A stretch of 48,338 nucleotides of DNA from Bacteroidota bacterium (GTDB lineage Bacteria > Bacteroidota > Ignavibacteria > Ignavibacteriales > Ignavibacteriaceae), in assembly GCA_021796135.1 (NCBI GenBank), contig JAJYOQ010000001.1, forward strand, positions 1 through 48,338, in the 5' to 3' direction. Numbering within the stretch: the stretch's first letter is position 1; every line of letters begins with the position of its first letter. A program made the translations under genes and the position numbers. The notes under the pieces are model-generated. The model had not been told where the DNA came from and made no database searches. It worked only from the letters and a program-made list of their open reading frames with translations. This document shows positions 18,827 through 36,712 of this stretch, one piece after another.

Positions 18827-21800
18827 ATGCGTAAACTCTTTACCATTTTTTTGTTAGGAATTGCTTTATACTCCATTTCTGCTAAAACAAATCTTTCAGG
18901 TAATATTTCCGCCGATTCAACTCTAACTTTATCCGGCAGCCCTTATATTGTGACAAGTAATGTGACAATTAACAATGCTGTAACACTGACGGTAGATTCG
19001 GCAGTAGTAATTCTTTTCACTAATAACACTAACCTTTATGTTTCCGGAACAATGCAGGCAAGATATGCAACATTCACTTCCGCTGCAGATACTATCGGAG
19101 GAATTGCTCACAACGGTGATTGGGGAAATATTCAAGTGGGTAACTATTACAATATAGGCTCGGTTATCATGGATACTTGTAACGTAAAATATGCCGGTAA
19201 TTCTAACAGCACTTCTCTCTATTTATCTAACGGAAGTCTAACATTATATTCAGTTTTCATTTCTAACTCTAGCCACGACGGGATTGGTGCCGGTGCCGGA
19301 GTAATATCTCTAAATAACGTAAATATATCTAATTGCACCGGAAACGGTATTACTTTTGGTCAGGGAGTTAGTGTATCTATGGCAAATTCAAGCATCCTTT
19401 CTTGTACTTGGCCAATTGTTTACAACGGTACAGCTTCTCTCGTTTTTAACGGCATAAATACATTTTCCGGCAATAAATATAATGGCATCTTAATGAATTT
19501 TTCCAACACTTCAACTTCATTAGTACTTGATACAATAAATATTCCTTACGTTTTCGGAGATTTTTACGTTAATTCAGGAACTACGCTTACAATTTCCTCA
19601 TCTGATGTACTCAAATTTAACGGCGGTCATTTGTATATCAATGGATCATTCAATGCTGTCGCTGCTCTTGGACAGAAAATTTATTTTACCTCTTATAAGA
19701 ATGATAATCTATTTGGGGATACTAATGGCGATGGATCAAATACCGGCCCGGCTACAAACGATTGGGGCGGCATAGTTTTTAATGATATAAGTATTGACAG
19801 TGCCTGCATTATGAAAAGATGCGATATTAGTTTTTCAGGATCAGGAAATATCGGTGGTGTAACAATGATTAATGCAAGCCCGACTGTCGACAGCTGCAAT
19901 ATTTCAAATAGTTACTACGGCGCTATGGTACAAGGGTTATCTAACCCAATATTTGTCAGTGATACTGTAGGATCAAGCCAGATGGTTCCATTCGCATTGT
20001 CATTCGAAGCAAATCCCGTTTTCAGCAACAATACTTTTTCTTTCTCCGATAATCAATATGATGCGATAGGTTTACTTGGAGGAACATTGCTTGGAAATGC
20101 GATTCTCCCTATTAGGTCAGTTACTTCAGTGCCTAACGTGACTTATTTAATGCTTAATTCTGTAACTATACCCTCCGGAATGTCACTGACAATTAATAAA
20201 GGAATTGTTATCAAAGCCTTCAACTATTACCAGAGATTTATTGTTCAGGGCAAGTTAGTAGCTGCAGGTTCAGCAGACAGTGCAATTGTATTTACTTCTG
20301 CGAAAGATGATAATTTTGGACACCCTGGCGATACTAACAAAGATGGGACTCAAACCGTTCCGGCAATAGGAGATTGGGGCGGAATTACTTTTGAAACAGG
20401 AAGCGATTCAAATTCAGTGCTCGATCATTGTATTATCCAATATGGTGATCTGCCGACTAGTTATTATTATAATGGTATTAACCTATACGGCGGTGAAATA
20501 ACAACAATTAATGCTAGCCCGACTATCAGTAATTGTTCAATAAAAGATATGGTTTACGGTATTTATGCATTTTCGAGTTCCCATCCGCTAATATTAAATG
20601 ATTCTCTTATTAATTCAACATCAACTCCAATTGCTATGTCAGTCGCTTCAAATCCGACATTTACGAATGATATCTTTGTAAATAATCAAATAATCGCATT
20701 AGGAATAATTGGAGAATATGTCCCGTTAAACGGAGAAATAAAAGTAAGAAATGTTGCGGGCTATAATAATATAACTTATGTGTTGTTAAGCGATCTTACC
20801 ATAAATTCCGGTGCAGATGTTACTGTCGACCCCGGGGTTGTAATAAAATCCGGAGGTCCTGGTATATATGTAAACGGCGGATTTAAAGCCAAAGGAACTA
20901 AGGCAGCAGGTAATGTTGTTTTTACATCTCTAAAAGATGATAATTTTGGAAACCCTTTTGATACCAATCACGACGGGAATTCAACTTCACCGGCTGCAGG
21001 AGATTGGAGCACTATAAGGTTTCTTCCAACAAGTGATGATGTATTTTCCCTCATTGATAGCTGTCTAATTAAATTTGGAGGTAATGGCGGCTGGGGTGGC
21101 GTTACATACTCAGGTGCGGGAAGTACCATCTCGAACTCAACAATTTCTGATTCATATAATTATGGAATAAGATGCGAAGGTTCTTCTAATCCTAATGTTG
21201 TAAATGTTGTTCTCCAAAACGGAAGGCTTGATCCCATTGCAATGTCTTTAACTTCTAATCCGACATTTACAAATATCACATTTACTGCTAACGGCAGCAA
21301 AGGCGTAAGAATAATTGAAGGTGTGCTTTCGTCGAATGCTTCATTAAATCAAAGAAGTATTGCCGGGATTCCAAATATAGCTTACATAATAGATCAATTA
21401 ACTATTTCGCCAAACGCTGTTTTAACGATTGAGCCCGGTGTTGTAATAAAATTTGCTAATTACTATGATGATATTAATGTACAGGGAGCAATGGTTGCAG
21501 ACGGAACAGCTACTCAAAAGGTTGTTTTCACTTCGCTTAAAGATGACTCAAACGGCGGAGATACAAATAATGACGGGAATAACTCAGCTCCGTCAAAAGG
21601 AGATTGGGACGCAATAGTCTTTAATCCGACAAATCTCGACTCTCTCAATTTGCTTAAAAATTGTATTTTCCGTTATGGCGGAAGTGACGCATATGGCAAT
21701 ATTTGGGGTGCAATCAGAGTTTATAATACAACTGTAAAAGTAGATAGCTGCACTGTTGAATTATCGAGTTCTTCCGCATTTGGAATTTCAGGTAGCGCAA

Positions 21801-24163
21801 ATCCCGTAATTACGAATTGCATGCTAGACAATATTAGCCAAACACCGGTTACAATGAGCATGTTTGCAAATCCTTCCTTTAGTAATAACACTGTGGTTAA
21901 TGTCGGAATTATGGCATTAGGAATTATTCCTGAAAATTACTCTGTAAATGATACTATACCTATCAGAAATTTTGGCGGTTATAATAACATTACATACTAT
22001 CTTTTGGGTACATGTACAATTAATTCGGGCACTACTATTATTATTCCTGCCGGATTGGTATTTAAAGGTGGAAATTTTGTGGTTAACGGCGCAATTGCTG
22101 TCCAAGGAACCCCGACTCAAAAAGTAGTATTTACAGATTTAAGAGATGATAGTTATGGTCACCCAAACGATACAAATCAAGATGGGACATCAACAACCCC
22201 AACTATTCAAGGCGGCAGCCGATTTAGTTTTGCCGATGTAAGCATCGACAGCTTATCCATTATTAACAATGCTTTAATTAGATACATGGATGCGGGAATT
22301 TATTTAACACAGGCATCTCCAAGAATTACTAATACAAAATTTGAGTATGATAATTGGGGTATATATTTAACCGGAGTTTCTAACCCTTCAATTGACAGCT
22401 GTTGGTTTAATAACCTTACCTATACACCGTTAAGATTATCTTTAGTCTCTTATCCTAGTTCAACAGTTGCAGATTCAATATCAGGCACAACATATAAAGC
22501 AATCGGAGTGCTTGATTATGAGACTCTAGTTCAAGATGTTACACTAACAAAAAAGTCTTTTGCCGGAATCAATAACATCCCTTATTTGTTTGCTCATTAT
22601 ACCGTAGCAAATAATTCAATCTTAACCCTCAGTCCCGGCCTAATTTTAAAATTCTTTCCCGGGTGCGGTTTAGATATAAACAAAGGTTTAATGGCTATTG
22701 GAGGATCTACTCCTGACAGTACAATAGTTCTTACAGATCTAAGAGATGATTATTACGGCGGAGATTCTAATTCCGACAGCAATGCTTCTAATCCTTATAG
22801 TTATTATCCGGGATGGAACGGTGTTACATTTGAAGGACAATCTCTTCCTACGGATTGTAATTTAAGTTATTGTGTTATAAGATATGCAGGCATTGGGAAT
22901 TCTGGTTCAGCAATTACAACAAACAATGCAAGTCCGACTATAACTCATACAGTATTAACGAATAATTACAATGGGCTTACCGCAAATGGCACTTCAAACC
23001 CTGTAATAAATTTCAGCGATATTTATCAAGATCAAAATCTTGGTGTTAACAATGTCAATCAATCATTTGTAATAAATGCAACAAATAACTGGTGGGGAGA
23101 TAATTCAGGTCCTAAAAATGCAACATTAAACCCGACCGGAGCCGGACAGGCGGTTTCCAATGGTGTTAATATTAATCCTTGGTTGGGCAGCGGCGCTTCA
23201 AATCCGATAATGGGCGATGTTAGCTTGAATGGATTAGTCCAAGCTTATGACGCTTCACTTATACTTAAATATGTGGTTAACCCTCATGGCGCCGATTCTT
23301 TAAATGCAATACAGCAGAAGGTTGCAGATGTTTCCGGTAACGGCACTATTACTGCTTATGACGCATCCTTAATTCTCCAGTATTCTGTCGGTTTAATTAC
23401 TTTTTTCCCGGCAGAATTGAGTCCTTCAAATGCTCAGCCCAATAATATTAAAACAAATCAATATTTAGCCCTTCAGAAAGTCAGTGGTGTTAAATTGGAA
23501 GTGTCCGGAGGGACTGCCAATTACGGTGATAAACTTTCAGTTCCTATAAAATTAACCAATGCTAGCGGAATTGTTTCGCTTCAGATAAATTTGAAATATT
23601 CCCCTTCGATGATGTCCTTTGATAATGCTTCACTCGGTAAAGAATATTCCGGATACAATCTGAATTTTTATGCGGATCAAAAGACTGGCAATCTTGACAT
23701 CGCATTTGCCGGGACAAAGCCTATGATCAGCGATGGGACTGTTCTATATCTTACTTTTGATATTTCAAAAGATTTGAAAGGAATAGTGAATACAAATCTT
23801 GATGTAACAAAATTTGTAGGCAATGAAACAGATTTTTCTAGTTCGGTAAGTTCAGCTTCAATTAAACTATTCGGCAAGCCGACAGCTTACCAACTCTACC
23901 AAAATTATCCGAATCCATTTAATCCTTCTACTATAATTGATTTTGAAGTTCCAAACGATAATTCTCCGGTGAGCTTGATAATTTATAATATTCAAGGGCA
24001 AGAGGTAAAAACTTTAATTAACTCTAACCGGAATGCGGGCAGATATTCTATTACGTGGGATGGCACCGATAACCATGGTGAGAAAGTAAGCTCGGGAATT
24101 TACTTCTGCCGCCTAATATCTAATAAATTCGTCGGCATTAAGAAAATGATTCTACTTAAGTAA
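18827..24163 (+). CDS. Giant secreted parallel-beta-helix repeat protein with dockerin-like, cohesin-like and T9SS sorting domains
   Basis: A 1778-residue surface or secreted protein. A Sec signal (residues 1-19, ending SISA) leads into parallel beta-helix sequence (S/N/T/G/I-rich turns such as ASPTISNCSI). Six ~200-residue repeats are marked by an acidic calcium-loop-like motif near residues 298, 501, 711, 911, 1115 and 1312: DTNGDG, DTNKDG, DTNHDG, DTNNDG, DTNQDG and the degenerate DSNSDS, each preceded by F-T-S/D-L-K/R-D-D and mostly followed by GDWxxIxF. A dockerin-like pair follows (~1462-1530: GDVSLNGLVQAYDASLIL and ADVSGNGTITAYDASLIL), then a cohesin-like beta-sandwich (~1553-1680), then a T9SS type-A sorting domain (~1690-1778, YQNYPNPFNPSTI, ending MILLK). 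Exact ligand or enzyme activity is not apparent. Confidence 0.92.
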   Translation: MRKLFTIFLLGIALYSISAKTNLSGNISADSTLTLSGSPYIVTSNVTINNAVTLTVDSAVVILFTNNTNLYVSGTMQARYATFTSAADTIGGIAHNGDWGNIQVGNYYNIGSVIMDTCNVKYAGNSNSTSLYLSNGSLTLYSVFISNSSHDGIGAGAGVISLNNVNISNCTGNGITFGQGVSVSMANSSILSCTWPIVYNGTASLVFNGINTFSGNKYNGILMNFSNTSTSLVLDTINIPYVFGDFYVNSGTTLTISSSDVLKFNGGHLYINGSFNAVAALGQKIYFTSYKNDNLFGDTNGDGSNTGPATNDWGGIVFNDISIDSACIMKRCDISFSGSGNIGGVTMINASPTVDSCNISNSYYGAMVQGLSNPIFVSDTVGSSQMVPFALSFEANPVFSNNTFSFSDNQYDAIGLLGGTLLGNAILPIRSVTSVPNVTYLMLNSVTIPSGMSLTINKGIVIKAFNYYQRFIVQGKLVAAGSADSAIVFTSAKDDNFGHPGDTNKDGTQTVPAIGDWGGITFETGSDSNSVLDHCIIQYGDLPTSYYYNGINLYGGEITTINASPTISNCSIKDMVYGIYAFSSSHPLILNDSLINSTSTPIAMSVASNPTFTNDIFVNNQIIALGIIGEYVPLNGEIKVRNVAGYNNITYVLLSDLTINSGADVTVDPGVVIKSGGPGIYVNGGFKAKGTKAAGNVVFTSLKDDNFGNPFDTNHDGNSTSPAAGDWSTIRFLPTSDDVFSLIDSCLIKFGGNGGWGGVTYSGAGSTISNSTISDSYNYGIRCEGSSNPNVVNVVLQNGRLDPIAMSLTSNPTFTNITFTANGSKGVRIIEGVLSSNASLNQRSIAGIPNIAYIIDQLTISPNAVLTIEPGVVIKFANYYDDINVQGAMVADGTATQKVVFTSLKDDSNGGDTNNDGNNSAPSKGDWDAIVFNPTNLDSLNLLKNCIFRYGGSDAYGNIWGAIRVYNTTVKVDSCTVELSSSSAFGISGSANPVITNCMLDNISQTPVTMSMFANPSFSNNTVVNVGIMALGIIPENYSVNDTIPIRNFGGYNNITYYLLGTCTINSGTTIIIPAGLVFKGGNFVVNGAIAVQGTPTQKVVFTDLRDDSYGHPNDTNQDGTSTTPTIQGGSRFSFADVSIDSLSIINNALIRYMDAGIYLTQASPRITNTKFEYDNWGIYLTGVSNPSIDSCWFNNLTYTPLRLSLVSYPSSTVADSISGTTYKAIGVLDYETLVQDVTLTKKSFAGINNIPYLFAHYTVANNSILTLSPGLILKFFPGCGLDINKGLMAIGGSTPDSTIVLTDLRDDYYGGDSNSDSNASNPYSYYPGWNGVTFEGQSLPTDCNLSYCVIRYAGIGNSGSAITTNNASPTITHTVLTNNYNGLTANGTSNPVINFSDIYQDQNLGVNNVNQSFVINATNNWWGDNSGPKNATLNPTGAGQAVSNGVNINPWLGSGASNPIMGDVSLNGLVQAYDASLILKYVVNPHGADSLNAIQQKVADVSGNGTITAYDASLILQYSVGLITFFPAELSPSNAQPNNIKTNQYLALQKVSGVKLEVSGGTANYGDKLSVPIKLTNASGIVSLQINLKYSPSMMSFDNASLGKEYSGYNLNFYADQKTGNLDIAFAGTKPMISDGTVLYLTFDISKDLKGIVNTNLDVTKFVGNETDFSSSVSSASIKLFGKPTAYQLYQNYPNPFNPSTIIDFEVPNDNSPVSLIIYNIQGQEVKTLINSNRNAGRYSITWDGTDNHGEKVSSGIYFCRLISNKFVGIKKMILLK

Positions 24164-24179
24164 TCTAAATAGAATTTAA

Positions 24180-24204
24180 TGGCGGTTTATTTTCTAAACC
24201 GCCA
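24180..24204 (+). other. Intercistronic stem-loop
   Basis: TGGCGGTTTA (24180-24189), loop TTTTC, TAAACCGCCA (24195-24204) makes a perfect 10-bp hairpin in the 63-base gap between the two sorting-domain genes. No T-run follows, so it looks less like a full terminator than a partial one or a transcript-stabilising hairpin that sets the ratio of the two proteins. Confidence 0.65.
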
Positions 24205-24226
24205 ATATTAAAACGATGGAAAGAAA

Positions 24227-26794
24227 ATGATTAGGAAAATAAAAATATTATTCGCTTTGTCACTTGTGTATTGCACTACATTAGTCGCAGCCCAAGTCGG
24301 CATGTCTATTCACGACTCGACATTTGTGCAGGGCACTGTTAATATTCCCGTTTATGTCGATAGCTCATTAACGGGATTAAATGTAACATCATTTAAATTG
24401 CAATTTACTTTTAGTCAATATTCTTTTGCCATTGATTCAGTAATTACAGGAGGCACAATTAGTCAGAGTTGGGGAAATGTTATTTACAATAAGAATTATC
24501 CCGGGCGATTAGATATAGCAGCCGGTGGCTCAACCCCGCTTAGCGGATCAGGTATTTTACTTTACATTAAAGTAGCAGCTTTAAACGGAGGTGGCTGGTT
24601 TTCCTTTACAGATACTCTGAATAATTATTTTAATGAAGGTTCCCCCAAAATGATATTAAATAATGGATATTTTAACATTTCTGCGCTTCCTTCAATTTCA
24701 ATTTATCCCTCATCAGGATTACTTACCGTTGGTGAAACCTTACAATTTCAGCCATCCGGAGGAAAATTACCTTACTCCTGGTCGGTAACAAATCCAACAG
24801 TAGCAAAAATAGATTCAAATGGATTGTTAACTGCTATAGGTATGGGCTTTACTAAAATCGTTGCAAAAGATTCCAGCGGTCTCATAGATACTATTTCGGG
24901 CAATGTTGAAGTTAGACCATTCAAACTAAGTATAGGAGACACATCTTTTTACCAGGGGCAAGCGGTCGAAATACCTATTTATACTTCAAATTTAAATGGA
25001 CTTAATGTTTCATCCGGTCAGTTTACTTTGTCATTTAACGGCGGAATTCTTTCTCCCATCAATATTATTACTTCCGGAACACTAACGCAAAACTTTGCAG
25101 CCCCATCGTTTAGTTATACTCCAGCCAACGGACAAATGAATTTTTCATTTGCCGGACATTCAAGTTTATCCGGAAGCGGAATTTTATTTTATATAAATTT
25201 TCAAATTACGAAAGTTAACGGCGGAGGAACCGGTCTTTCACTATCTAATATTTTATTTAATCAAAATCTTCCCGGGAATTCTTTACAGGGATATTTTAAT
25301 GTAATCAGCTTATCTACATTGTATATTTCACCTAATACTGCATCTCTTATTAGCGGAGATACTCTCAGATTTTCTGCATCAGGCGGAACTCCGCCTTATA
25401 GATATTTTGTAAGTGATTCTTCATTAGCATCAATAGATTCAACCGGATTGCTTCGAGCAATTAAGGGCGGTATTGTAACGGTCTCCGCAAAGGATGTTTT
25501 TGGCGGCTCAGGAATTTCCGGTAATATTAATTTATATGATACTAAATTATCAATTCCGGATACATCAATAAGCATTGGTTCAACATTTGATATTCCGGTC
25601 TCTGTAGGCAGCATGTCAAATACCTTTAATGTTTCTTCTTTGCAAACTACTCTAATCTTTGATTCTTCTGTTGTTAAGTTTGATCAAATTGTTACCACTG
25701 GAACACTAACAAACGGCTGGTCATATCAAATTAATAATGAAGGGAATAAAATAATATTGGCATCTGCAGGTTCTGCCAGCTTTAACAACGCCGGCGTTGT
25801 ATTCAAAATTCAGTTTACCATATCGGCAAACACTCAGATTAATAGATCAACATCGATTAGTCTGCAGCAATTTTTATTTAACGAAGGATTACCTATTACT
25901 GAAATAAAAAATGGAAGCATTATAGTTTCAAGCGGAATAATTCCTTCTGCGCCTTCTAATTTAAACGCAACAGCTAATGGATCCGGCATTATCAATTTAA
26001 TCTGGGTTGATAATTCTAATAATGAAATCGGCTTCAAAATAGAACGAAGTCTGGATACTTTAAGCGGATATTCTCTAATCCAGACTCTCTCCGCAAATTC
26101 AACTTCATATTCAGATACAGGATTAATTGATGGAACAAAATATTTTTATCGCATTTACTCATATAACGCTTCAGGCAATTCAGGATATTCAAATATAGCG
26201 TCATCAATTACTGCATTAATTGCTCCTACGAACCTAACGGTAACAGATTCATCCAAACCGACATTATCTTGGACAAATAATTCAACAAGCGCACAAGGAT
26301 TAATAATTGAAAGAAAAACAGCTAGCGGGAATTATGCTGTTATCGATACAGTAAATTCCACCATTTCTATGTTTGTTGACTCTTCCGTTACCGTTGGTTT
26401 AGACTATTTTTATCGGGTTAAGGCGTTCAATAATCTCGTTCAGTCATCTTATTCTAATGAAGTTTCAATTATGATAACAAAAATATTTAGTGGGTTAAAT
26501 AATATTATAGTTAAATTCGATTTGCTTCAAAATTATCCTAATCCATTTAATCCCTCCACGATAATTAAATATGATATACCAAAAACATCATTTGTAAGTA
26601 TAAAGATTTTTAATCTTCTTGGTAAAGAAGTTGCCACGATTGTGAATGAAGAAAAACTTCCGGGTGAATATTCTATTACATTCAATGCCGATAATATTTC
26701 GGGAAGTGGGAGAAATCTTTCAAGCGGTGTTTATTTTTATGAGATATCTGCAGGAAGTTTTTTTGAAACTAAAAAATTTGTTTTACTTAAATGA
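24227..26794 (+). CDS. Secreted scaffold-like protein: three cohesin-like domains, BIG2-like and FN3 domains, T9SS sorting tail
   Basis: An 855-residue exported protein with a Sec signal (1-22, ending LVAA). Modules by eye: cohesin-like 1 (~24-150), BIG2-like (~153-229, LTVGETLQF and AKIDSNGLLTAIG), cohesin-like 2 (~233-360), BIG2-like (~362-436), cohesin-like 3 (~438-568), FN3 (~572-665), FN3 (~667-750), T9SS type-A sorting domain (~762-855, QNYPNPFNPSTI, ending KKFVLLK). Each cohesin-like unit has the 'GLNV(T/S)S' or 'FNVSS' strand, 'SGSGIL(L/F)YI' or equivalent, and a late FNEG.P/FNQNLP-type motif. It lies 63 bases after a protein carrying a dockerin-like module, suggesting a docking partner. 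No catalytic domain is seen. Confidence 0.9.
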   Translation: MIRKIKILFALSLVYCTTLVAAQVGMSIHDSTFVQGTVNIPVYVDSSLTGLNVTSFKLQFTFSQYSFAIDSVITGGTISQSWGNVIYNKNYPGRLDIAAGGSTPLSGSGILLYIKVAALNGGGWFSFTDTLNNYFNEGSPKMILNNGYFNISALPSISIYPSSGLLTVGETLQFQPSGGKLPYSWSVTNPTVAKIDSNGLLTAIGMGFTKIVAKDSSGLIDTISGNVEVRPFKLSIGDTSFYQGQAVEIPIYTSNLNGLNVSSGQFTLSFNGGILSPINIITSGTLTQNFAAPSFSYTPANGQMNFSFAGHSSLSGSGILFYINFQITKVNGGGTGLSLSNILFNQNLPGNSLQGYFNVISLSTLYISPNTASLISGDTLRFSASGGTPPYRYFVSDSSLASIDSTGLLRAIKGGIVTVSAKDVFGGSGISGNINLYDTKLSIPDTSISIGSTFDIPVSVGSMSNTFNVSSLQTTLIFDSSVVKFDQIVTTGTLTNGWSYQINNEGNKIILASAGSASFNNAGVVFKIQFTISANTQINRSTSISLQQFLFNEGLPITEIKNGSIIVSSGIIPSAPSNLNATANGSGIINLIWVDNSNNEIGFKIERSLDTLSGYSLIQTLSANSTSYSDTGLIDGTKYFYRIYSYNASGNSGYSNIASSITALIAPTNLTVTDSSKPTLSWTNNSTSAQGLIIERKTASGNYAVIDTVNSTISMFVDSSVTVGLDYFYRVKAFNNLVQSSYSNEVSIMITKIFSGLNNIIVKFDLLQNYPNPFNPSTIIKYDIPKTSFVSIKIFNLLGKEVATIVNEEKLPGEYSITFNADNISGSGRNLSSGVYFYEISAGSFFETKKFVLLK

Positions 26795-26948: not shown

Positions 26949-29945
26949 ATGAAATTGCGGATTACACTTTTTATACTAACAGTTATTCTCTATTGCGGTA
27001 TTACTCAAAGCCAGATTTTGCCGTTTATTAACTATTCGTTAAAAGATGGCCTGGTTTCAGATAATATTCAGGCAATTTGCCAGGACTCAAAGGGATATAT
27101 ATGGATTGGGACTGGTGAAGGTATCAGCGCTTTTGACAGCAGGCAATTTCATAATTACTATTCAGACGATGGTCTTTCTTCAAACAGCATTACATCAATT
27201 GCCTCTGATAATAAAATTTTGGGTTCAATTTGGGTTGGTACTACTTCGGGTGTAGACAGATTTACAAATGGGAAATTTATTCGTTATGGTCAAAACCTGC
27301 CTTCTACCATGAAAAATATTAACTCCGTTTTTGTAGATAGAAATGATAATGTGTTTTGCGGAATCGACAGCGGATTTTACATAATTCAGAATGATAAAAT
27401 AAAATTAATAAATAATTATAAAATTGGTTCAGTTTATTCGTTTGCGCAATGTTCCGGTAATGAAATATTTGTAGCATCCGATATGGGACTTTTTTCTTAT
27501 AATTTAGCAGCAAATACATTAAAAAACATCGCCCTTCCAAATTTAAAAAACAGTAAAATCTTTTTGACCCTTGCTGATAAAGATAAAATATTATTTGCTG
27601 TATCTTCAAGCGGAATATTATACAGAATTTATAAAAGTGAAATTCGATATTTTAATGTTAAGTTTATACCAACTTCAATTGTTGAAGATGAATTTAATAA
27701 TCTATGGATAGGAGGAACTCATGGATTATATAAACTTAATAAAAATTTTTCCCCTTCAAGTTTACTTACAAAGTATACGGTCGATAATGGTCTAGCCCAA
27801 AATAATATCTCTTCACTTTATGTTGACAGGGAAAATATTTTATGGATTGGAACTTTGGTAAACGGTATATCGAAATTAACTTATCCGGAACTAGTTAAAT
27901 TTAAAGTTTCAAAACAGTATCATACTGCAAGCTGGGCTTATTCTGCTTGTGATGCAAATTCTCATTTCTGGATCTCTTTTACCGGATATGCTCTGGAAAT
28001 TTGGGCGGATAAGAATAAGGTATGGCATAAATATGTTCATAAGCTCGAGAATTACGATTCCAATCAATTGGCTTCTTTTTTTTGTTCTAATGGCATGAGA
28101 CTATTCGTTACGAATCCCTCCGGGATGATTTACGTATATGATATTATCCAAAATAATCCCCTTTCAAATATCCCTTCACAAATTAAATTGAAGGAAAAAA
28201 TTGATCTATCAAGCAGATTTAAGTTTTATGGGATTTATAAAACTTTAGTGGATGCTGATGGGAATCTATGGTGCAGTGCATTAAATCTTGGCGTAATTGT
28301 TATGGATAATACTAAACAAAGAAGAGTCATAAAAATTTATAAAAAGTCGGACGGACTTCCAGATAACTCAGTAAGAGAAATTTATCAGGATCATCAAGGT
28401 AATATGTGGTTTGGCGGCTATGATGGCGGTCTTTCCGTTTTTTCTATCGGGAAAATATCTGCCGACATTAAAAAAGAAAAAACAAACTCTAAAAATTATG
28501 TTAAACATTTTACCGTTAAAAATGGATTGCCTGATAATGGTGTCAGAGCAATAATTGAATATAATTTAAATGAAATTGTTATTGGGACAAGATATGGCGG
28601 AGTAGCTATATATGATAATGGTCATTTTAGAATATTGACAAAATCCAGCGGATTATATAGCAACGCTATTTGGAGTATTTTAAAATCCGCTAATGGCAAT
28701 ATCTGGTTAGGGACACAATCGGGAGTACAGGAATTAAATAAGGATTATCTTCCTACTTATAAATTATTTGAAGTACTTCCAAAGGTGCCTTATTATTCAA
28801 TTAGTTCTGCTCCCAATGGAGATCTTTGTTTCGCAAATCAGTCCGAAATTTTTATTTACAGAGAATTAAGAATACCCAATTACAATAAGAACCTGCCAAT
28901 ATATATAAATAATGTCCTTATTGACGGACAAAAAATTAAAGTTAATAAAAATTTAACTTTAAGAGATGATCAAAATACTATTACATTTGAATATATAGGA
29001 ATAATTAATCGGCACCAAAGAGACTTGAGTTATAAATATCGTCTAATAGGTCTTGATAAAAACTGGAATACTGTTACAACTAAAAATTCTCTTACCTATG
29101 CGGCTTTAAGACCCGGGGAATATACATTCCAGGTACTTGCAATGAGTGGTAATTATCTAAAGAGCAATTATCCTGCAGAAATTAGTTTTTATATTCTGTC
29201 CCCCTTTTATTTCCAATTATGGTTTATTTTATTAGCGGTGATTTTGGCAATTACGATAATTTACTTTATATCAAGAATTGGAGTCAGACAGCAGCTTGAA
29301 ATTGAAAAATTGAGAAATAAAATTGCATCTGACTTGCATGATGATATTGGATTAGGCTTAACAAAGATTGCAATATTATCTGAAAATGCACTTAATGACG
29401 GATTGAAAACTTATCATTCAAAGAATGAAAATTCTACTGAAATAGAGAACTTTTCCAGGAATAAATCTCTGGAGCGTGTCGGAAAGATTTCCAGATCACT
29501 TATAGATTCTATGGTTGATGTAATTTGGTCAATTGATCCGAAATTTGATACTGTACAAGATTTTATTTCCCATTTTAAAACATATGCTTATGAAGTCTGT
29601 GAAGCAAAGAATATTAAACTTAGCATTGCAACTAAAGGGATAGAAAATGTTAAAGTCAATTCTCAATGTAAAAGAAGTCTTCAATTAATTACCAAAGAAT
29701 CTTTAAATAATGCACTTAAATATTCTCAGTGTACAACTTTCAAAGTGTCATTGTCTATCGTAAATAAAAATTTAACTTTGATTCTGGAAGATAATGGTAT
29801 CGGATTCGATACAAGAGAATCAACCACAGGCAGAGGTTTGTCTGATATTTCTAAACAAGTTCGGGATTTAAAAGGAAGCTTCAAAATCACTTCATCAAAA
29901 GATGAAGGTACTAAATTAATTATCAATTTTTTGGTACAAAAATAA
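26949..29945 (+). CDS. Two-component sensor kinase with periplasmic beta-propeller and Y_Y_Y domain (HisKA_3 type)
   Basis: A 998-residue sensor. A signal segment (~1-21) leads into a large periplasmic region of two-component propeller repeats (~28-680), recognisable by recurring IWIGT/LWIGT/MWFGG/IWLGT strands and DGL..N.I or NGLPDN.VR segments. A Y_Y_Y domain (~690-755, ITFEYIGI, YKYRLIGLDKNWN, LRPGEYTFQVLA), one TM (~760-780), HisKA_3 with DLHDDIGLGLTKI (phospho-acceptor His797) and a HATPase (NNALKYSQ, DNGIGFD, GRGLSDI) follow. Such sensors in Bacteroidota typically read glycans or surface cues. Unlike hybrid versions it has no receiver or AraC output; instead the next gene is a matching NarL-type regulator. 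It follows the surface-protein genes on the same strand. Confidence 0.94.
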   Translation: MKLRITLFILTVILYCGITQSQILPFINYSLKDGLVSDNIQAICQDSKGYIWIGTGEGISAFDSRQFHNYYSDDGLSSNSITSIASDNKILGSIWVGTTSGVDRFTNGKFIRYGQNLPSTMKNINSVFVDRNDNVFCGIDSGFYIIQNDKIKLINNYKIGSVYSFAQCSGNEIFVASDMGLFSYNLAANTLKNIALPNLKNSKIFLTLADKDKILFAVSSSGILYRIYKSEIRYFNVKFIPTSIVEDEFNNLWIGGTHGLYKLNKNFSPSSLLTKYTVDNGLAQNNISSLYVDRENILWIGTLVNGISKLTYPELVKFKVSKQYHTASWAYSACDANSHFWISFTGYALEIWADKNKVWHKYVHKLENYDSNQLASFFCSNGMRLFVTNPSGMIYVYDIIQNNPLSNIPSQIKLKEKIDLSSRFKFYGIYKTLVDADGNLWCSALNLGVIVMDNTKQRRVIKIYKKSDGLPDNSVREIYQDHQGNMWFGGYDGGLSVFSIGKISADIKKEKTNSKNYVKHFTVKNGLPDNGVRAIIEYNLNEIVIGTRYGGVAIYDNGHFRILTKSSGLYSNAIWSILKSANGNIWLGTQSGVQELNKDYLPTYKLFEVLPKVPYYSISSAPNGDLCFANQSEIFIYRELRIPNYNKNLPIYINNVLIDGQKIKVNKNLTLRDDQNTITFEYIGIINRHQRDLSYKYRLIGLDKNWNTVTTKNSLTYAALRPGEYTFQVLAMSGNYLKSNYPAEISFYILSPFYFQLWFILLAVILAITIIYFISRIGVRQQLEIEKLRNKIASDLHDDIGLGLTKIAILSENALNDGLKTYHSKNENSTEIENFSRNKSLERVGKISRSLIDSMVDVIWSIDPKFDTVQDFISHFKTYAYEVCEAKNIKLSIATKGIENVKVNSQCKRSLQLITKESLNNALKYSQCTTFKVSLSIVNKNLTLILEDNGIGFDTRESTTGRGLSDISKQVRDLKGSFKITSSKDEGTKLIINFLVQK

Positions 29946-29946
29946 A

Positions 29947-29969
29947 CTATCCAAATGATTAGTTGAAAT
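29947..29969 (+). promoter_or_regulatory. Second copy of the 23-bp motif, upstream of the response regulator
   Basis: Starts right after the kinase stop codon and ends about 45 bases before the regulator's ATG. It differs at 4 of 23 positions from 18599-18621 (core GATTAGTTGA). Its placement before the regulator gene would suit autoregulation by the encoded regulator. Evidence is only the sequence match. Confidence 0.35.
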
Positions 29970-30014
29970 TAAAATTTTCCAGTGCTATTCTTGAGAAGAT
30001 TAATTATAAAAAAT

Positions 30015-30659
30015 ATGGAAGATAAATCAATAATACGAGTCGCAATTCTCGATGACGATAATGAATTCCAGGAAATCCTGTGTGACGTACTAAATAAATC
30101 AGAAGGTTTCAAATGTGTGGCTACTTACCACAATTGCAGGGAAGCATTAGAACAAATAGAAGAAGATCTCCCCGATATTCTATTGCTTGATATTGAAATG
30201 CCTGAAAAGTCCGGTATTGAAAGTTTGAGGGAAATTAAATCAGCATTTCCTGCAATTGTAATAATGATGCTGACTGTCTATTGCGATAGTGAAAAAATTT
30301 TCCAGTCTCTTCAAGGAGGAGCAGTAGGTTATTTGCTAAAAAAGACTCCAATAATTAAACTGCTTCAAGCTATTCGGGAAGCCCTTGAAGGGGGAGCTCC
30401 ATTCTCCGGAGAAGTTGCACGAAAAGTCCTACAATATTTTCAGATGCCCGAAAATCAATTAAATTCAACTTTTTTGTCCGATAGAGAAAAGCAAGTTTTA
30501 AATGAGCTGATTGAAGGACATGGCACAAAGGCAATTGCAGATAAACTTTTTGTCTCAATGCATACGGTTCGGTTTCATCTTCATAATATTTATAAAAAAC
30601 TTCACGTAAATTCCCGCGCTGAAGCAATTGCAAAAGCCCTAAAAAACAAGTTCGCATAA
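30015..30659 (+). CDS. NarL/FixJ-family response regulator
   Basis: DNA-binding partner of the preceding HisKA_3 kinase. The receiver domain (~7-122) has DDD acid pocket residues at 13-15, phospho-acceptor Asp59 (LLLDIEMPEKSG), the MLT switch residue and YLLKK near 107-110. The LuxR-type HTH (~150-213) shows LSDREKQVLNELIEGHGTKAIA-like text and VSMHTVRFHLHNIYKKL. I chose the ATG at 30015, giving 214 residues beginning MEDKSIIRVAIL, because the receiver strand starts right there. An upstream GTG at 29982 would add 11 residues not expected in the family. Expected targets are nearby surface-protein genes. Confidence 0.93.
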   Translation: MEDKSIIRVAILDDDNEFQEILCDVLNKSEGFKCVATYHNCREALEQIEEDLPDILLLDIEMPEKSGIESLREIKSAFPAIVIMMLTVYCDSEKIFQSLQGGAVGYLLKKTPIIKLLQAIREALEGGAPFSGEVARKVLQYFQMPENQLNSTFLSDREKQVLNELIEGHGTKAIADKLFVSMHTVRFHLHNIYKKLHVNSRAEAIAKALKNKFA

Positions 30660-34926: not shown

Positions 34927-35382
34927 ATGTTTACTACTGTCAGATATTTTATTAAAACAAGTATCATATTCTTAATTACCGGAATCCTTACAGGACTTTA
35001 TATGTCCATTAATATGCATCTGCATTTCGGCGGTTACTCCCCTGAAATAGTTTCTGCCCATACTCATATAATTCTGGTTGGTTCCGTTATGATGATGATT
35101 ATGGGTGTCGCCTTATGGTTTTTCCCGCGACCGGAAAAAGAAGACAAAAAATATAATCCCGGCATGATTCTATTTACCTACTGGATAATGACCGTATCTA
35201 CTGCATTAAGATTTGCTAGCGAATTAGTTAATTCATTTATTGAAATAAGAACTATTGAAGTATTTATAACAATTTTTTCCTTTTTCCAGGTCCTGGCAAT
35301 AATACTTTTCTTTTATAGTATTTGGGGAAGAATAAGATCCGTCGGCAGCCATATTAGAGAATCAAAGGGAGAAAGATTTTAA
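34927..35382 (+). CDS. Short four-TM haem-copper-oxidase subunit I-like protein
   Basis: A 151-residue membrane protein with four hydrophobic segments (~8-28, 44-66, 80-100, 110-132). The segment HLHFGGYSPEIVSAHTHIIL followed by VGSVMMMIMGVALWFFPRP resembles the first helices of subunit I of NO reductase and cbb3-type oxidases (CcoN/NorB), including possible haem-ligating His residues. The protein is far too short for a complete subunit I (usually about 450 residues), so it cannot hold the full haem-copper site. A good ribosome site (AGGAGG) lies before the ATG. With the HAO-like cytochrome downstream it may form a nitrogen-oxide redox complex; this is inferred. Confidence 0.75.
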   Translation: MFTTVRYFIKTSIIFLITGILTGLYMSINMHLHFGGYSPEIVSAHTHIILVGSVMMMIMGVALWFFPRPEKEDKKYNPGMILFTYWIMTVSTALRFASELVNSFIEIRTIEVFITIFSFFQVLAIILFFYSIWGRIRSVGSHIRESKGERF

Positions 35383-35437: not shown

Positions 35438-36712
35438 ATGTTTAAACAAATACCAAAAACTTTAACAATAGGGATATCGGTAGTTGTAATTTTTTTATTC
35501 ATAATTTATTTTTTGACAAAACTTCCTACCGGAGGAGAAACCAATTCAACTCAGCAAATATCCTTTAGCGGAGCCGATAAATGCGCTGCCTGCCATAAAA
35601 GAGTAACTCCCGATATTGTAAATCAATTTGCAATTAGCACAATGGCAAAAGCAGGTGTCAGATGTACAGATTGTCACGTAGTTGATCGCTCTAATCCGAT
35701 GGGAAAGGAACATGAAGGATTTTTTATAACAGTTTCTCCCACTCCAAAACAATGCGCAAAATGTCACCCAGCCGAAACAACACAGTTTGAACACAGCAGA
35801 CACGGCGGTCCGGCATGGGTCGCATTGAGCGGCTTCTCGGACTTTACACCCGAACAAAAAAAAGTTGTTGAACAAATTCCTGAAGTCAATCGCGGTCCAA
35901 ACGGAATTATTACTGCAACCAGGAATTCACTCTTTGACATTGAAGGTACTTCGGTTACTCCTGCAGCCTGCCTTTCATGTCATTCAATAGGCAAACCAAA
36001 TGCTGATGGCAGCATAGGTAATTGTAATAAATGCCATCTTCGTCATGAATTTTCTATTTCACAAGTGCGCAAACCCGAAATTTGCGGACAATGCCATATT
36101 GGTCCCGATCATCCTCAAACGGAAATCTATCATGAATCTGCACACGGAGTGATGTACCTGACAGAAGGCTCTAAATGGAACTGGAATCAAAAGCCGGGCA
36201 GATTAACAACTACTGATATGCCCGCACCTACCTGCGCTACCTGTCATATGAGCGGGTTTGGTAATCAAGGAACTACACACGATGTGGGTCAAAGATTATC
36301 CAAATTTTTATTTGCTGCTGTAACCACAGATAGACCAAATTCATTTGAAGGTCGTGAAGCTATGAAGTCTATTTGCGCTAATTGTCATTCATCTAAGTTC
36401 ATTGACGAACAATATGCTAAGGCTGATAGCGTAACCGCATTTGTAAATTCTAAGGTTCAGGAAGCTAATCAAATAATGCAGGGATTGGTAAAAGACGGAA
36501 TAATTTCCGATAAACCCTTTGCAAATACTATTAGTTTTGATGCATTTGATCTATGGCATTTTTACGGCAGAACTGCCAAGTTCGGTGCATATATGCAGGG
36601 ACCTGATTACGTTCAATGGCATGGCATTTATCCTCTGCTTAAACAACTAACAAAAGTAAAAGAAGAAGCTGCGGCATTAAGAGCCGAACATAAACGTGGA
36701 GGAAGGTTATGA
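35438..36712 (+). CDS. Octahaem cytochrome c, hydroxylamine oxidoreductase (HAO)-like
   Basis: A 424-residue multihaem protein held by an uncleaved N-terminal TM anchor (~10-27), with the body outside the inner membrane. Eight CxxCH motifs start at residues 49, 76, 106, 178, 196, 216, 266 and 313. HAO-family landmarks are present: HESAHGVMYLTEGSKWNW, MPAPTCATCHMSGFG, TTHDVGQRLS, and GPDYVQWHGIYPLLK. In nitrifiers the family oxidises hydroxylamine; in non-nitrifiers it is thought to work reductively on nitrite, NO or hydroxylamine, typically lacking the Tyr cross-link to the P460 haem. Whether Tyr391 or another residue fills that role needs alignment. A strong ribosome site (AAAGGAG) precedes the ATG, and the stop overlaps the next gene. 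Confidence 0.9.
   Translation: MFKQIPKTLTIGISVVVIFLFIIYFLTKLPTGGETNSTQQISFSGADKCAACHKRVTPDIVNQFAISTMAKAGVRCTDCHVVDRSNPMGKEHEGFFITVSPTPKQCAKCHPAETTQFEHSRHGGPAWVALSGFSDFTPEQKKVVEQIPEVNRGPNGIITATRNSLFDIEGTSVTPAACLSCHSIGKPNADGSIGNCNKCHLRHEFSISQVRKPEICGQCHIGPDHPQTEIYHESAHGVMYLTEGSKWNWNQKPGRLTTTDMPAPTCATCHMSGFGNQGTTHDVGQRLSKFLFAAVTTDRPNSFEGREAMKSICANCHSSKFIDEQYAKADSVTAFVNSKVQEANQIMQGLVKDGIISDKPFANTISFDAFDLWHFYGRTAKFGAYMQGPDYVQWHGIYPLLKQLTKVKEEAAALRAEHKRGGRL

What the first reader, a model, noticed from the sequence alone, without database searches (positions are those of the whole stretch)
18827..26794. Dockerin/cohesin-type surface assembly with T9SS sorting, outside any cellulase cluster
Seen: the first protein carries a dockerin-like pair (two D-V-S-x-N-G...YDASLIL segments near 1462-1530) and its own cohesin-like domain. 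The next gene, 63 bases away, encodes three cohesin-like domains separated by BIG2-like domains, then FN3 domains. Both end in T9SS sorting domains. Known: cohesin-dockerin pairs build cellulosomes in Firmicutes, while their roles elsewhere are poorly understood. Inference: the triple-cohesin protein is a surface scaffold that docks the giant beta-helix protein, which could also self-associate through its own cohesin. No glycoside hydrolase is adjacent, so this would be a non-cellulosomal assembly.
Basis: partly seen in the sequence, partly recalled or inferred. Interest (0 to 1): 0.72.

Follow-up and report, generated by a model that had tools for sequence, protein, structure and literature searches.

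The report
Paired dockerin rod and cohesin scaffold
Two neighbouring genes encode a giant rod-shaped surface protein carrying a molecular plug (dockerin) and a second surface protein carrying three socket domains (cohesins); the two genes keep turning up side by side in related bacteria, which points to a private two-part surface assembly with no visible link to cellulose digestion.

Summary
In detail: beta-helix, dockerin, cohesin, T9SS tail in the 1778-aa protein; three cohesins spaced by BIG2, two FN3 and a T9SS tail in the 855-aa protein 63 bp downstream. Solved dockerins and cohesins are matched by profile and by AlphaFold model. New here: giant and triple-cohesin scaffold occur in the same genomes (12 of 198; 14 of 149). 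In the 24 loci of these samples they lie together, giant first: directly in 23, with one small cohesin gene between in 1. Three cohesins were detected in each scaffold. Twenty-one giant-bearing genomes have 1-6 dockerins; in 4 the giant's is the only one found. A dedicated non-cellulosomal plug-and-socket pair is thus well supported by genetics; binding is untested. Docking to the giant's own cohesin stays open: that cohesin is weakly conserved, but dockerin-cohesin-T9SS recurs as a tail on unrelated proteins. A new variant of noncellulosomal cohesin-dockerin systems; moderate interest.

The parts
18827..24163 (+). giant protein, 1778 aa: signal peptide (by eye), beta-helix, dockerin, cohesin, T9SS tail
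18914..23146 (+). right-handed beta-helix, residues about 30-1440, with six D(T/S)NxD(G/S) loops about 200 residues apart (298, 502, 712, 912, 1115, 1313)
   Evidence: Pfam Beta_helix; motif positions
23204..23416 (+). dockerin, residues 1460-1530; two loops D-V-S-L-N-G-L-V-Q-A-Y-D and D-V-S-G-N-G-T-I-T-A-Y-D
   Evidence: Pfam, profile to solved dockerins 1.3e-15, AlphaFold ten-residue means 89-97 over most of it
23474..23851 (+). the giant's own cohesin, residues 1550-1675
23879..24160 (+). T9SS type A C-terminal domain of the giant, residues 1685-1778
24227..26794 (+). scaffold protein, 855 aa
   Evidence: AlphaFold pLDDT 88.3, pTM 0.42
24296..24682 (+). scaffold cohesin 1, residues 24-152
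   Evidence: profile 4.4e-6 to 1g1k
24683..24907 (+). BIG2-like spacer 1
24908..25306 (+). scaffold cohesin 2, residues 228-360
25307..25528 (+). BIG2-like spacer 2
25532..25936 (+). scaffold cohesin 3, residues 436-570
25946..26476 (+). two FN3 domains (stalk; the part behind the cohesins varies in length between relatives)
26507..26791 (+). T9SS type A C-terminal domain of the scaffold
   Evidence: TIGR04183
26949..30659 (+). neighbouring two-component system: Reg_prop/Y_Y_Y sensor kinase (26949-29945) and LuxR-type regulator (29982-30659); link to the pair is only suggestive
   Evidence: Pfam; a similar pair lies directly upstream of the giant in 6 of 24 relatives

Best explanation
A dedicated two-protein surface assembly. 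Both genes are probably one transcription unit; both products are exported by Sec and then T9SS and attached at their C-termini (inferred from the tails). The scaffold's N-terminal head of three cohesins spaced by BIG2 domains, held out on a stalk of variable length, captures the calcium-binding dockerin of up to three giants, making a cluster of about 1400-residue beta-helix rods on the outer surface. The giant's own cohesin would then be a stalk domain, or a weaker or temporary partner that covers the dockerin until the scaffold takes over. Shown: domains, gene linkage, co-occurrence, the three-cohesin layout, few other dockerins. Inferred: export, binding, number bound, role as a surface structure.
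For: The same 12 of 198 genomes and the same 14 of 149 genomes hold both genes. In the 24 loci of these samples the scaffold follows the giant on the same strand, 23 directly and 1 with one extra cohesin gene between; gap 24-63 bp in the 15 loci measured, window included. Also adjacent in G312, a genome reached through another locus, and in L003. Three cohesins were detected in each of the 25 scaffolds compared; third and own cohesins each form one clade of 25 (support 0.80, 0.79), second 22 of 25, first 18 of 25, so the layout is old and kept. The dockerin is the most conserved of four segments of the giant (66% mean pairwise identity in 30 giants; beta-helix 58%, T9SS tail 55%, own cohesin 30%), with D-S-N-D of loop 1 in 30 of 30. 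Scaffold cohesins are better kept than the own one (46, 44 and 39% in 30 scaffolds). Only 1-6 dockerins by Pfam per giant-bearing genome, the giant's alone in 4 of 21. Dockerin and scaffold cohesin 2 match best the two partners of one solved pair, 4uyp/4uyq.
Against: No binding test of any kind; no complex could be predicted. A mirror-tree test did not single out the scaffold cohesins: partial correlations with the dockerin were 0.46, 0.38, 0.52 (C1-C3) against 0.45 (own cohesin), 0.40 (T9SS tail) and 0.31 (BIG2). Dockerin-cohesin-T9SS recurs as a tail in proteins with no beta-helix, which fits a dockerin working with the cohesin beside it. Geometry is awkward: the dockerin sits near the giant's anchored end, the cohesins at the scaffold's free end. 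Loop 2 of the dockerin lacks N or D at position 5 in 11 of 30 giants. Genomes are of unstated completeness and the Pfam count is limited by its threshold, so dockerin counts are lower bounds.
Confidence: 0.53

Rival explanations
1. The dockerin binds the cohesin beside it, within one molecule or between giants, giving a closed tail or chains; the scaffold cohesins serve another client or only as Ig-like spacers.
For: Doc-Coh-T9SS stand in tandem in all 25 giants compared and as a tail of proteins without a helix: G269, G236, G241, G001:C43 and several proteins of other genomes. In G304, 11 places match the giant's profile in this region; 10 were looked at as whole ORFs and 9 have a dockerin before the cohesin-like domain and tail, 1 has none. 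The AlphaFold model of the tail has pTM 0.81 over three domains, against 0.42 for the scaffold; I could not see coordinates or which faces touch. Dockerin-own cohesin tree correlation is about that with the scaffold cohesins.
Against: Own cohesin has 30% mean identity across 30 giants against 66% for the dockerin, and 39-46% for the scaffold cohesins in 30 scaffolds. It does not explain why giant and triple-cohesin scaffold come together in every sampled genome that has either.
Confidence: 0.27
2. Scaffold as general socket: its three cohesins receive several dockerin proteins of the cell, the giant being one of them, as in a small cellulosome-like complex.
For: Other dockerin-bearing T9SS proteins exist in many of these genomes: Big_1 proteins (G001, G009, G096), a subtilase (G171), a 2409-aa FN3 protein (G001), a CBM20-bearing protein (G130). 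Published precedent: Ca. Stygibacter of Cloacimonadota, enzymes with dockerins and a cohesin scaffold with a T9SS-type tail (PMC8542988, passages).
Against: In 4 of 21 genomes the giant's dockerin is the only one found. In G171, G043, G103, G051 and G130 another dockerin protein has its own neighbouring cohesin protein.
Confidence: 0.15
3. The modules are Ig-like and EF-hand-like building blocks without docking; adjacency reflects common regulation of surface proteins.
For: A cohesin-like fold in adhesion proteins is reported for TMEM132 (listing and start of abstract only). No experiment on these proteins was found.
Against: Well conserved dockerin, position-by-position retention of three cohesins and complete co-occurrence in the samples.
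Confidence: 0.05

Closest known systems
Cohesin-dockerin cellulosome-like complex of Ca. Stygibacter (Cloacimonadota), PMC8542988 (passages read)
   Same: Cohesin scaffold with a T9SS-type C-terminal domain in an FCB-group bacterium; dockerins on exported proteins; inferred from sequence only
   Different: There the dockerins named sit on GH18, GH57, peptidases and a halomucin-like protein, and the scaffold (3755 aa) carries CBMs; here the linked client is a beta-helix giant with no enzyme domain found and a T9SS tail of its own, and few dockerins exist per genome
Noncellulosomal cohesin/dockerin proteins of archaea: Archaeoglobus fulgidus (2xdh) and ANME (PMC9012536, passages read)
   Same: Cohesin and dockerin in one protein with a cohesin neighbour (A. 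fulgidus arrangement recalled, no call); own cohesin profile hits 2xdh at 1.6e-8; cellular role unclear
   Different: No beta-helix giant is described in the passages seen; absence of T9SS there is recalled. The paper cites the older view that archaea lack scaffoldins and reports ANME proteins with a dockerin and up to 5 cohesins
Type I dockerin-cohesin pair ScaB-ScaC of Acetivibrio cellulolyticus (4uyp, 4uyq)
   Same: Best solved match of the dockerin (1.3e-15) and of scaffold cohesin 2 (2.7e-8)
   Different: Cellulosomal and Gram-positive (recalled); here outer-membrane T9SS tails and no cellulase context

Membership tests
Type I dockerin (PF00404) | Pfam score above curated cut-off; match to solved dockerins | tested here: met
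   33.0 bits against 22.9; profile A8 hits the ScaB dockerin at 1.3e-15; the 20 sequences at E<=0.01 are named as dockerins, scaffoldins, serine proteases or polysaccharide-degrading enzymes
Type I dockerin (PF00404) | two duplicated 12-residue loops with oxygen ligands at 1, 3, 5, 12 | tested here: met
   Window has D-S-N-D in both loops; loop 1 the same in 30 of 30 giants; loop 2 position 5 is N in 15, D in 4, other in 11 of 30. Position numbering recalled
Type I dockerin (PF00404) | calcium-dependent binding to a cohesin | not testable with these tools
   no complex prediction or assay available
Cohesin (PF00963) | cohesin sequence profile and beta-sandwich fold | tested here: met
T9SS type A cargo | Sec signal peptide and TIGR04183 C-terminal domain | tested here: met
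   TIGR04183 above cut-off in both; signal peptides judged by eye; helix 2-17 in the scaffold model
T9SS type A cargo | T9SS machinery in the same genome; surface attachment | not tested
   window genome not held; machinery was not searched in relatives
Cellulosome | dockerins on glycoside hydrolases, CBM-bearing scaffoldin, many dockerins | tested here: not met
   1-6 dockerins per giant-bearing genome, no enzyme domain in the giant and no CBM in the window scaffold by Pfam, no glycoside hydrolase among 16 window proteins scanned; counts are from relatives, not from the window's own genome
Noncellulosomal cohesin-dockerin system | cohesin and dockerin modules outside a cellulase context | tested here: met
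   binding not testable

The most novel reading that the evidence does not exclude
An ancient, single-client surface machine of FCB-group bacteria: a three-socket scaffold that gathers three copies of one giant beta-helix rod into trimeric clusters, possibly lattice or cell-to-cell links, in which cohesin-dockerin docking builds an outer surface structure rather than holding enzymes.
Probability: 0.28. Interest if true: 0.75.

Novelty: new variant of a known kind. Interest (0 to 1): 0.52.

Why it matters
Roles of cohesin-dockerin pairs outside cellulosomes are largely unknown. Here a partner can be named from genetics: one giant, one scaffold, together in every sampled genome that has either, and in a few genomes the only dockerin found. 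That makes a short binding experiment decisive, and a positive result would show docking used to build a surface structure on T9SS cells. It could also give a new plug-and-socket pair for protein engineering. Searches of the held paper library for dockerin with Ignavibacteria, T9SS, beta-helix, Balneola, Kryptonia, Melioribacter, Calditrichota and Gemmatimonadota terms listed no paper that I recognised as describing this pair; only listings, starts of abstracts and passages of three papers were seen, and most subscription papers are missing from the library.

Tried and rejected
Chance similarity: rejected, scores above curated cut-offs and confirmed by structure. Cellulosome: rejected for relatives (few dockerins, no enzyme on the giant). 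Mirror-tree test for the partner: no discrimination between scaffold cohesins, own cohesin and controls; inconclusive. Foldseek with the whole scaffold model: the 50 rows shown are mostly multi-Ig or FN3 proteins, uninformative; the VIA second look does show cohesins. Two-component neighbour as a conserved part: a similar kinase-regulator pair lies directly upstream of the giant in 6 of 24 loci, all of one type (that of G002, whose record L002 is named Balneola; the other five are unnamed), and as a complete pair in none of the other 18 (flanks of several are cut by contig ends), while in the window it is downstream; left as suggestive. Promoter and terminator scans: 83 promoter-like sites against 58.6 expected and 10 terminator-like against 7.6; no + strand terminator-like site between the two genes; weak evidence. 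The genome-contig scan used a T9SS motif as one of its two patterns, so most of its 80 loci share only the tail. Rows dropped before counts: matches from about residue 1455 on without a helix (G001:C43, G269, G236:C2, G241:C55), a contig-start fragment that cannot be classed (G199:C142) and other contig-end pieces (G096:C73, G216:C21, G292:C28) were not counted as giants. In G001:C23, G051, G130, G103, G280, G267 and G252:C46 the giant profile aligned only from about residue 1346-1378 on; they were counted because diverged helix repeats are found in the same ORF. Scaffolds were picked by eye as matches covering the cohesin part among 96 genomes with any match (most are FN3/T9SS-only) from a list that ends near E 3e-35; the 18 near-full-length matches in 14 genomes were counted and 19 further genomes had partial cohesin matches only. 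Candidates scored per genome were at most 4, 2, 9, 3.

Full report
What is there. Two + strand ORFs, 18827-24163 (1778 aa) and 24227-26794 (855 aa), lie 63 bp apart. Pfam gives the first a right-handed beta-helix, a type I dockerin (33.0 bits, cut-off 22.9), a cohesin (45.5 bits, cut-off 24.1) and a C-terminal sorting-type domain; the second has cohesins (76.3 bits in all, two stretches passing alone), Big_2 and fn3 with two stretches each, and a sorting domain. NCBIfam places both tails above the cut-off of TIGR04183, T9SS type A sorting. Family profiles resolve the second protein as COH-BIG2-COH-BIG2-COH followed by the FN3 stalk and tail.

The dockerin. Both loops read D-x-S-x-N-G...A-Y-D-A-S-L-I-L. 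In 30 aligned giants, positions 1, 3, 5, 10 and 12 of loop 1 are D, S, N, A, D in 30 of 30 and position 11 is Y (18) or F (12); in loop 2, positions 1, 3 and 12 are D, S, D in 29, 29 and 30, but position 5 is N in only 15. Near-identical loops would fit the two-way ('dual') binding known for type I dockerins; that the residues at 10-11 decide recognition is recalled knowledge. In some relatives loop 2 has A-M or A-L instead, so the symmetry is not universal.

Relatives. Protein searches scored about 8000 candidates each and found 211 proteins like the scaffold and 2053 like the giant's last 499 residues, the best 120 of each listed; named sources include Ignavibacteria, Kryptonia, Calditrichaeota, Cloacimonetes, Marinimicrobia and Bacteroidota. 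Identity of 29 aligned giants to the window's is 49-80%, high for a surface protein in my judgement. Mean pairwise identity among the 30 is 66% for the dockerin, 58% for the helix, 55% for the tail and 30% for the own cohesin; among 30 scaffolds the three cohesins stand at 46, 44 and 39%.

Linkage. In 198 genomes drawn from the phylum of G001 (the genome of L001, an Ignavibacteriae MAG), triple-cohesin scaffolds occur in 12 and giants in the same 12. In 149 genomes of the class of G119, near-full-length triple-cohesin matches occur in 14 (18 loci; 19 further genomes have partial cohesin matches only); giants with a helix occur in the same 14; a fifteenth genome of that tally (G269) has a dockerin-cohesin-T9SS protein without helix. 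The 24 distinct loci (14 and 18, 8 shared) all have the scaffold after the giant on the same strand; in 23 directly, in G267 with one 332-aa single-cohesin gene between. The gap is 24-63 bp in the 15 loci measured, window included. The pair is also adjacent in L003 and in G312, reached through another locus, where the giant carries an in-frame stop. If the two genes were independent, identical sets of 14 in 149 would have chance 6e-20; relatedness of genomes makes this an overstatement.

A kept layout. In the 25 scaffolds compared (window and 24) three cohesins were detected each time, while the length of complete ones runs from 666 to 2401 aa. In a tree of the 100 cohesins, all 25 third cohesins and all 25 own cohesins each form one clade (support 0.80 and 0.79); 22 of 25 second and 18 of 25 first cohesins do (0.97 each). 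The number and order of sockets is old and kept; the stalk behind them is free to vary.

Other dockerins. By PF00404, 21 giant-bearing genomes hold 1-6 dockerins each; in G119, G002, G166 and G216 the giant's is the only one. Elsewhere others sit on Big_1 proteins, a subtilase, a large FN3 protein and a CBM20 protein. Several dockerin proteins without a helix again have a cohesin protein as next neighbour (L197, L204, L207, L208, L209, L265). Gene pairs of this kind thus seem to be a recurrent design in these bacteria.

The giant's own cohesin. It is the least conserved domain measured and a separate lineage. But dockerin-cohesin-T9SS is also the tail of proteins without a helix (G001:C43, G269, G236:C2, G241:C55) and of others from different genomes (loci fetched by similarity to this region, so biased). 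In G304, 9 of 10 proteins looked at have a dockerin before the cohesin-like domain and tail, 1 has none, and an eleventh match was not seen as an ORF. With the tail model's pTM of 0.81, packing or docking of dockerin and own cohesin remains a serious rival. A mirror-tree test could not choose between partners.

How it most likely works. One transcript, two T9SS cargo proteins; the scaffold's head captures up to three giants through calcium-loaded dockerins, perhaps by taking them from the cohesin next door. Shown: anatomy, linkage, conservation. Inferred: export, binding, number bound, role. One oddity: T9SS attaches C-termini (recalled), so the dockerin is close to the membrane and the scaffold's cohesins are far from it; either the stalk bends back, or one partner is released, or binding is between cells.

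Against what is known. The closest published case I found is Ca. Stygibacter (PMC8542988, passages), where dockerins carry mainly enzymes. ANME archaea (PMC9012536, passages) have noncellulosomal sets of unclear role. Melioribacter roseus was reported without dockerins on its cellulases (PMC3534657, passages). Peer et al. 2009, the survey of noncellulosomal modules, was not held. The finding is a new variant: a dedicated giant-scaffold pair with no enzyme domain found on either protein of the window.

Noticed in passing
G304 (genome of L007, record CP070758.1, MAG Gemmatimonadota bacterium bin29): One 5.04-Mb chromosome with at least 148 Dockerin_1 matches (150 of 525 candidates scored) and 81 cohesin matches. 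Of nine dockerin proteins scanned, eight carry another family (GH99, GH57, peptidase M1, FG-GAP twice, Omp28, beta-helix, LanC-like), and eight end in the dockerin with no T9SS tail matched. A very large cohesin-dockerin set; paper searches for dockerin with Gemmatimonadota/Gemmatimonadetes showed no title on it (listings only).
   Followed up: partly
L204:11227-16595, L207:77-5265, L208:16908-19899, L209:872-6078: A second pair near the giant-scaffold locus in four genomes: a Coh-Doc-T9SS protein (1253-1386 aa where complete; starch-binding CBM20 in L209) followed by a 346-472 aa cohesin-T9SS protein.
   Followed up: partly
L197:256-6455: A subtilase with dockerin and T9SS tail followed by a cohesin/HYDIN-Ig/T9SS protein, 4.5 kb before a giant-scaffold pair.
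   Followed up: partly
L265:2215-7853 (G269): A 1367-aa Doc-Coh-T9SS protein without helix followed by a 481-aa protein with two cohesins and a T9SS tail: another plug-socket gene pair.
   Followed up: no
window 26949-30659; L202, L203, L205, L206, L208, L209: Y_Y_Y sensor kinase (with Reg_prop repeats in the window, L202, L203 and L206; none listed for L208 and L209 at the cut used; L205 seen by similarity only) with LuxR-type regulator, downstream of the pair in the window and directly upstream of the giant in six relatives. May regulate the pair or be coincidence.
   Followed up: partly
window 18914-23146: Six D(T/S)NxD(G/S) loops at about 200-residue spacing in the beta-helix, possible calcium sites; D298, N300, D302, G303, D502, N504, D912, N914 and others are invariant in 30 giants.
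   Followed up: no
L226:8393-9391 (G267): A 332-aa single-cohesin gene inserted between giant and scaffold, with no T9SS tail matched.
   Followed up: no
L248 (G312): Giant interrupted by one in-frame stop, scaffold with three cohesins intact; sequencing error or decaying gene.
   Followed up: no
window 34927-35382 and 35438-36712: A 151-aa COX1-like ORF just under the Pfam cut-off next to a multihaem cytochrome gene.
   Followed up: no
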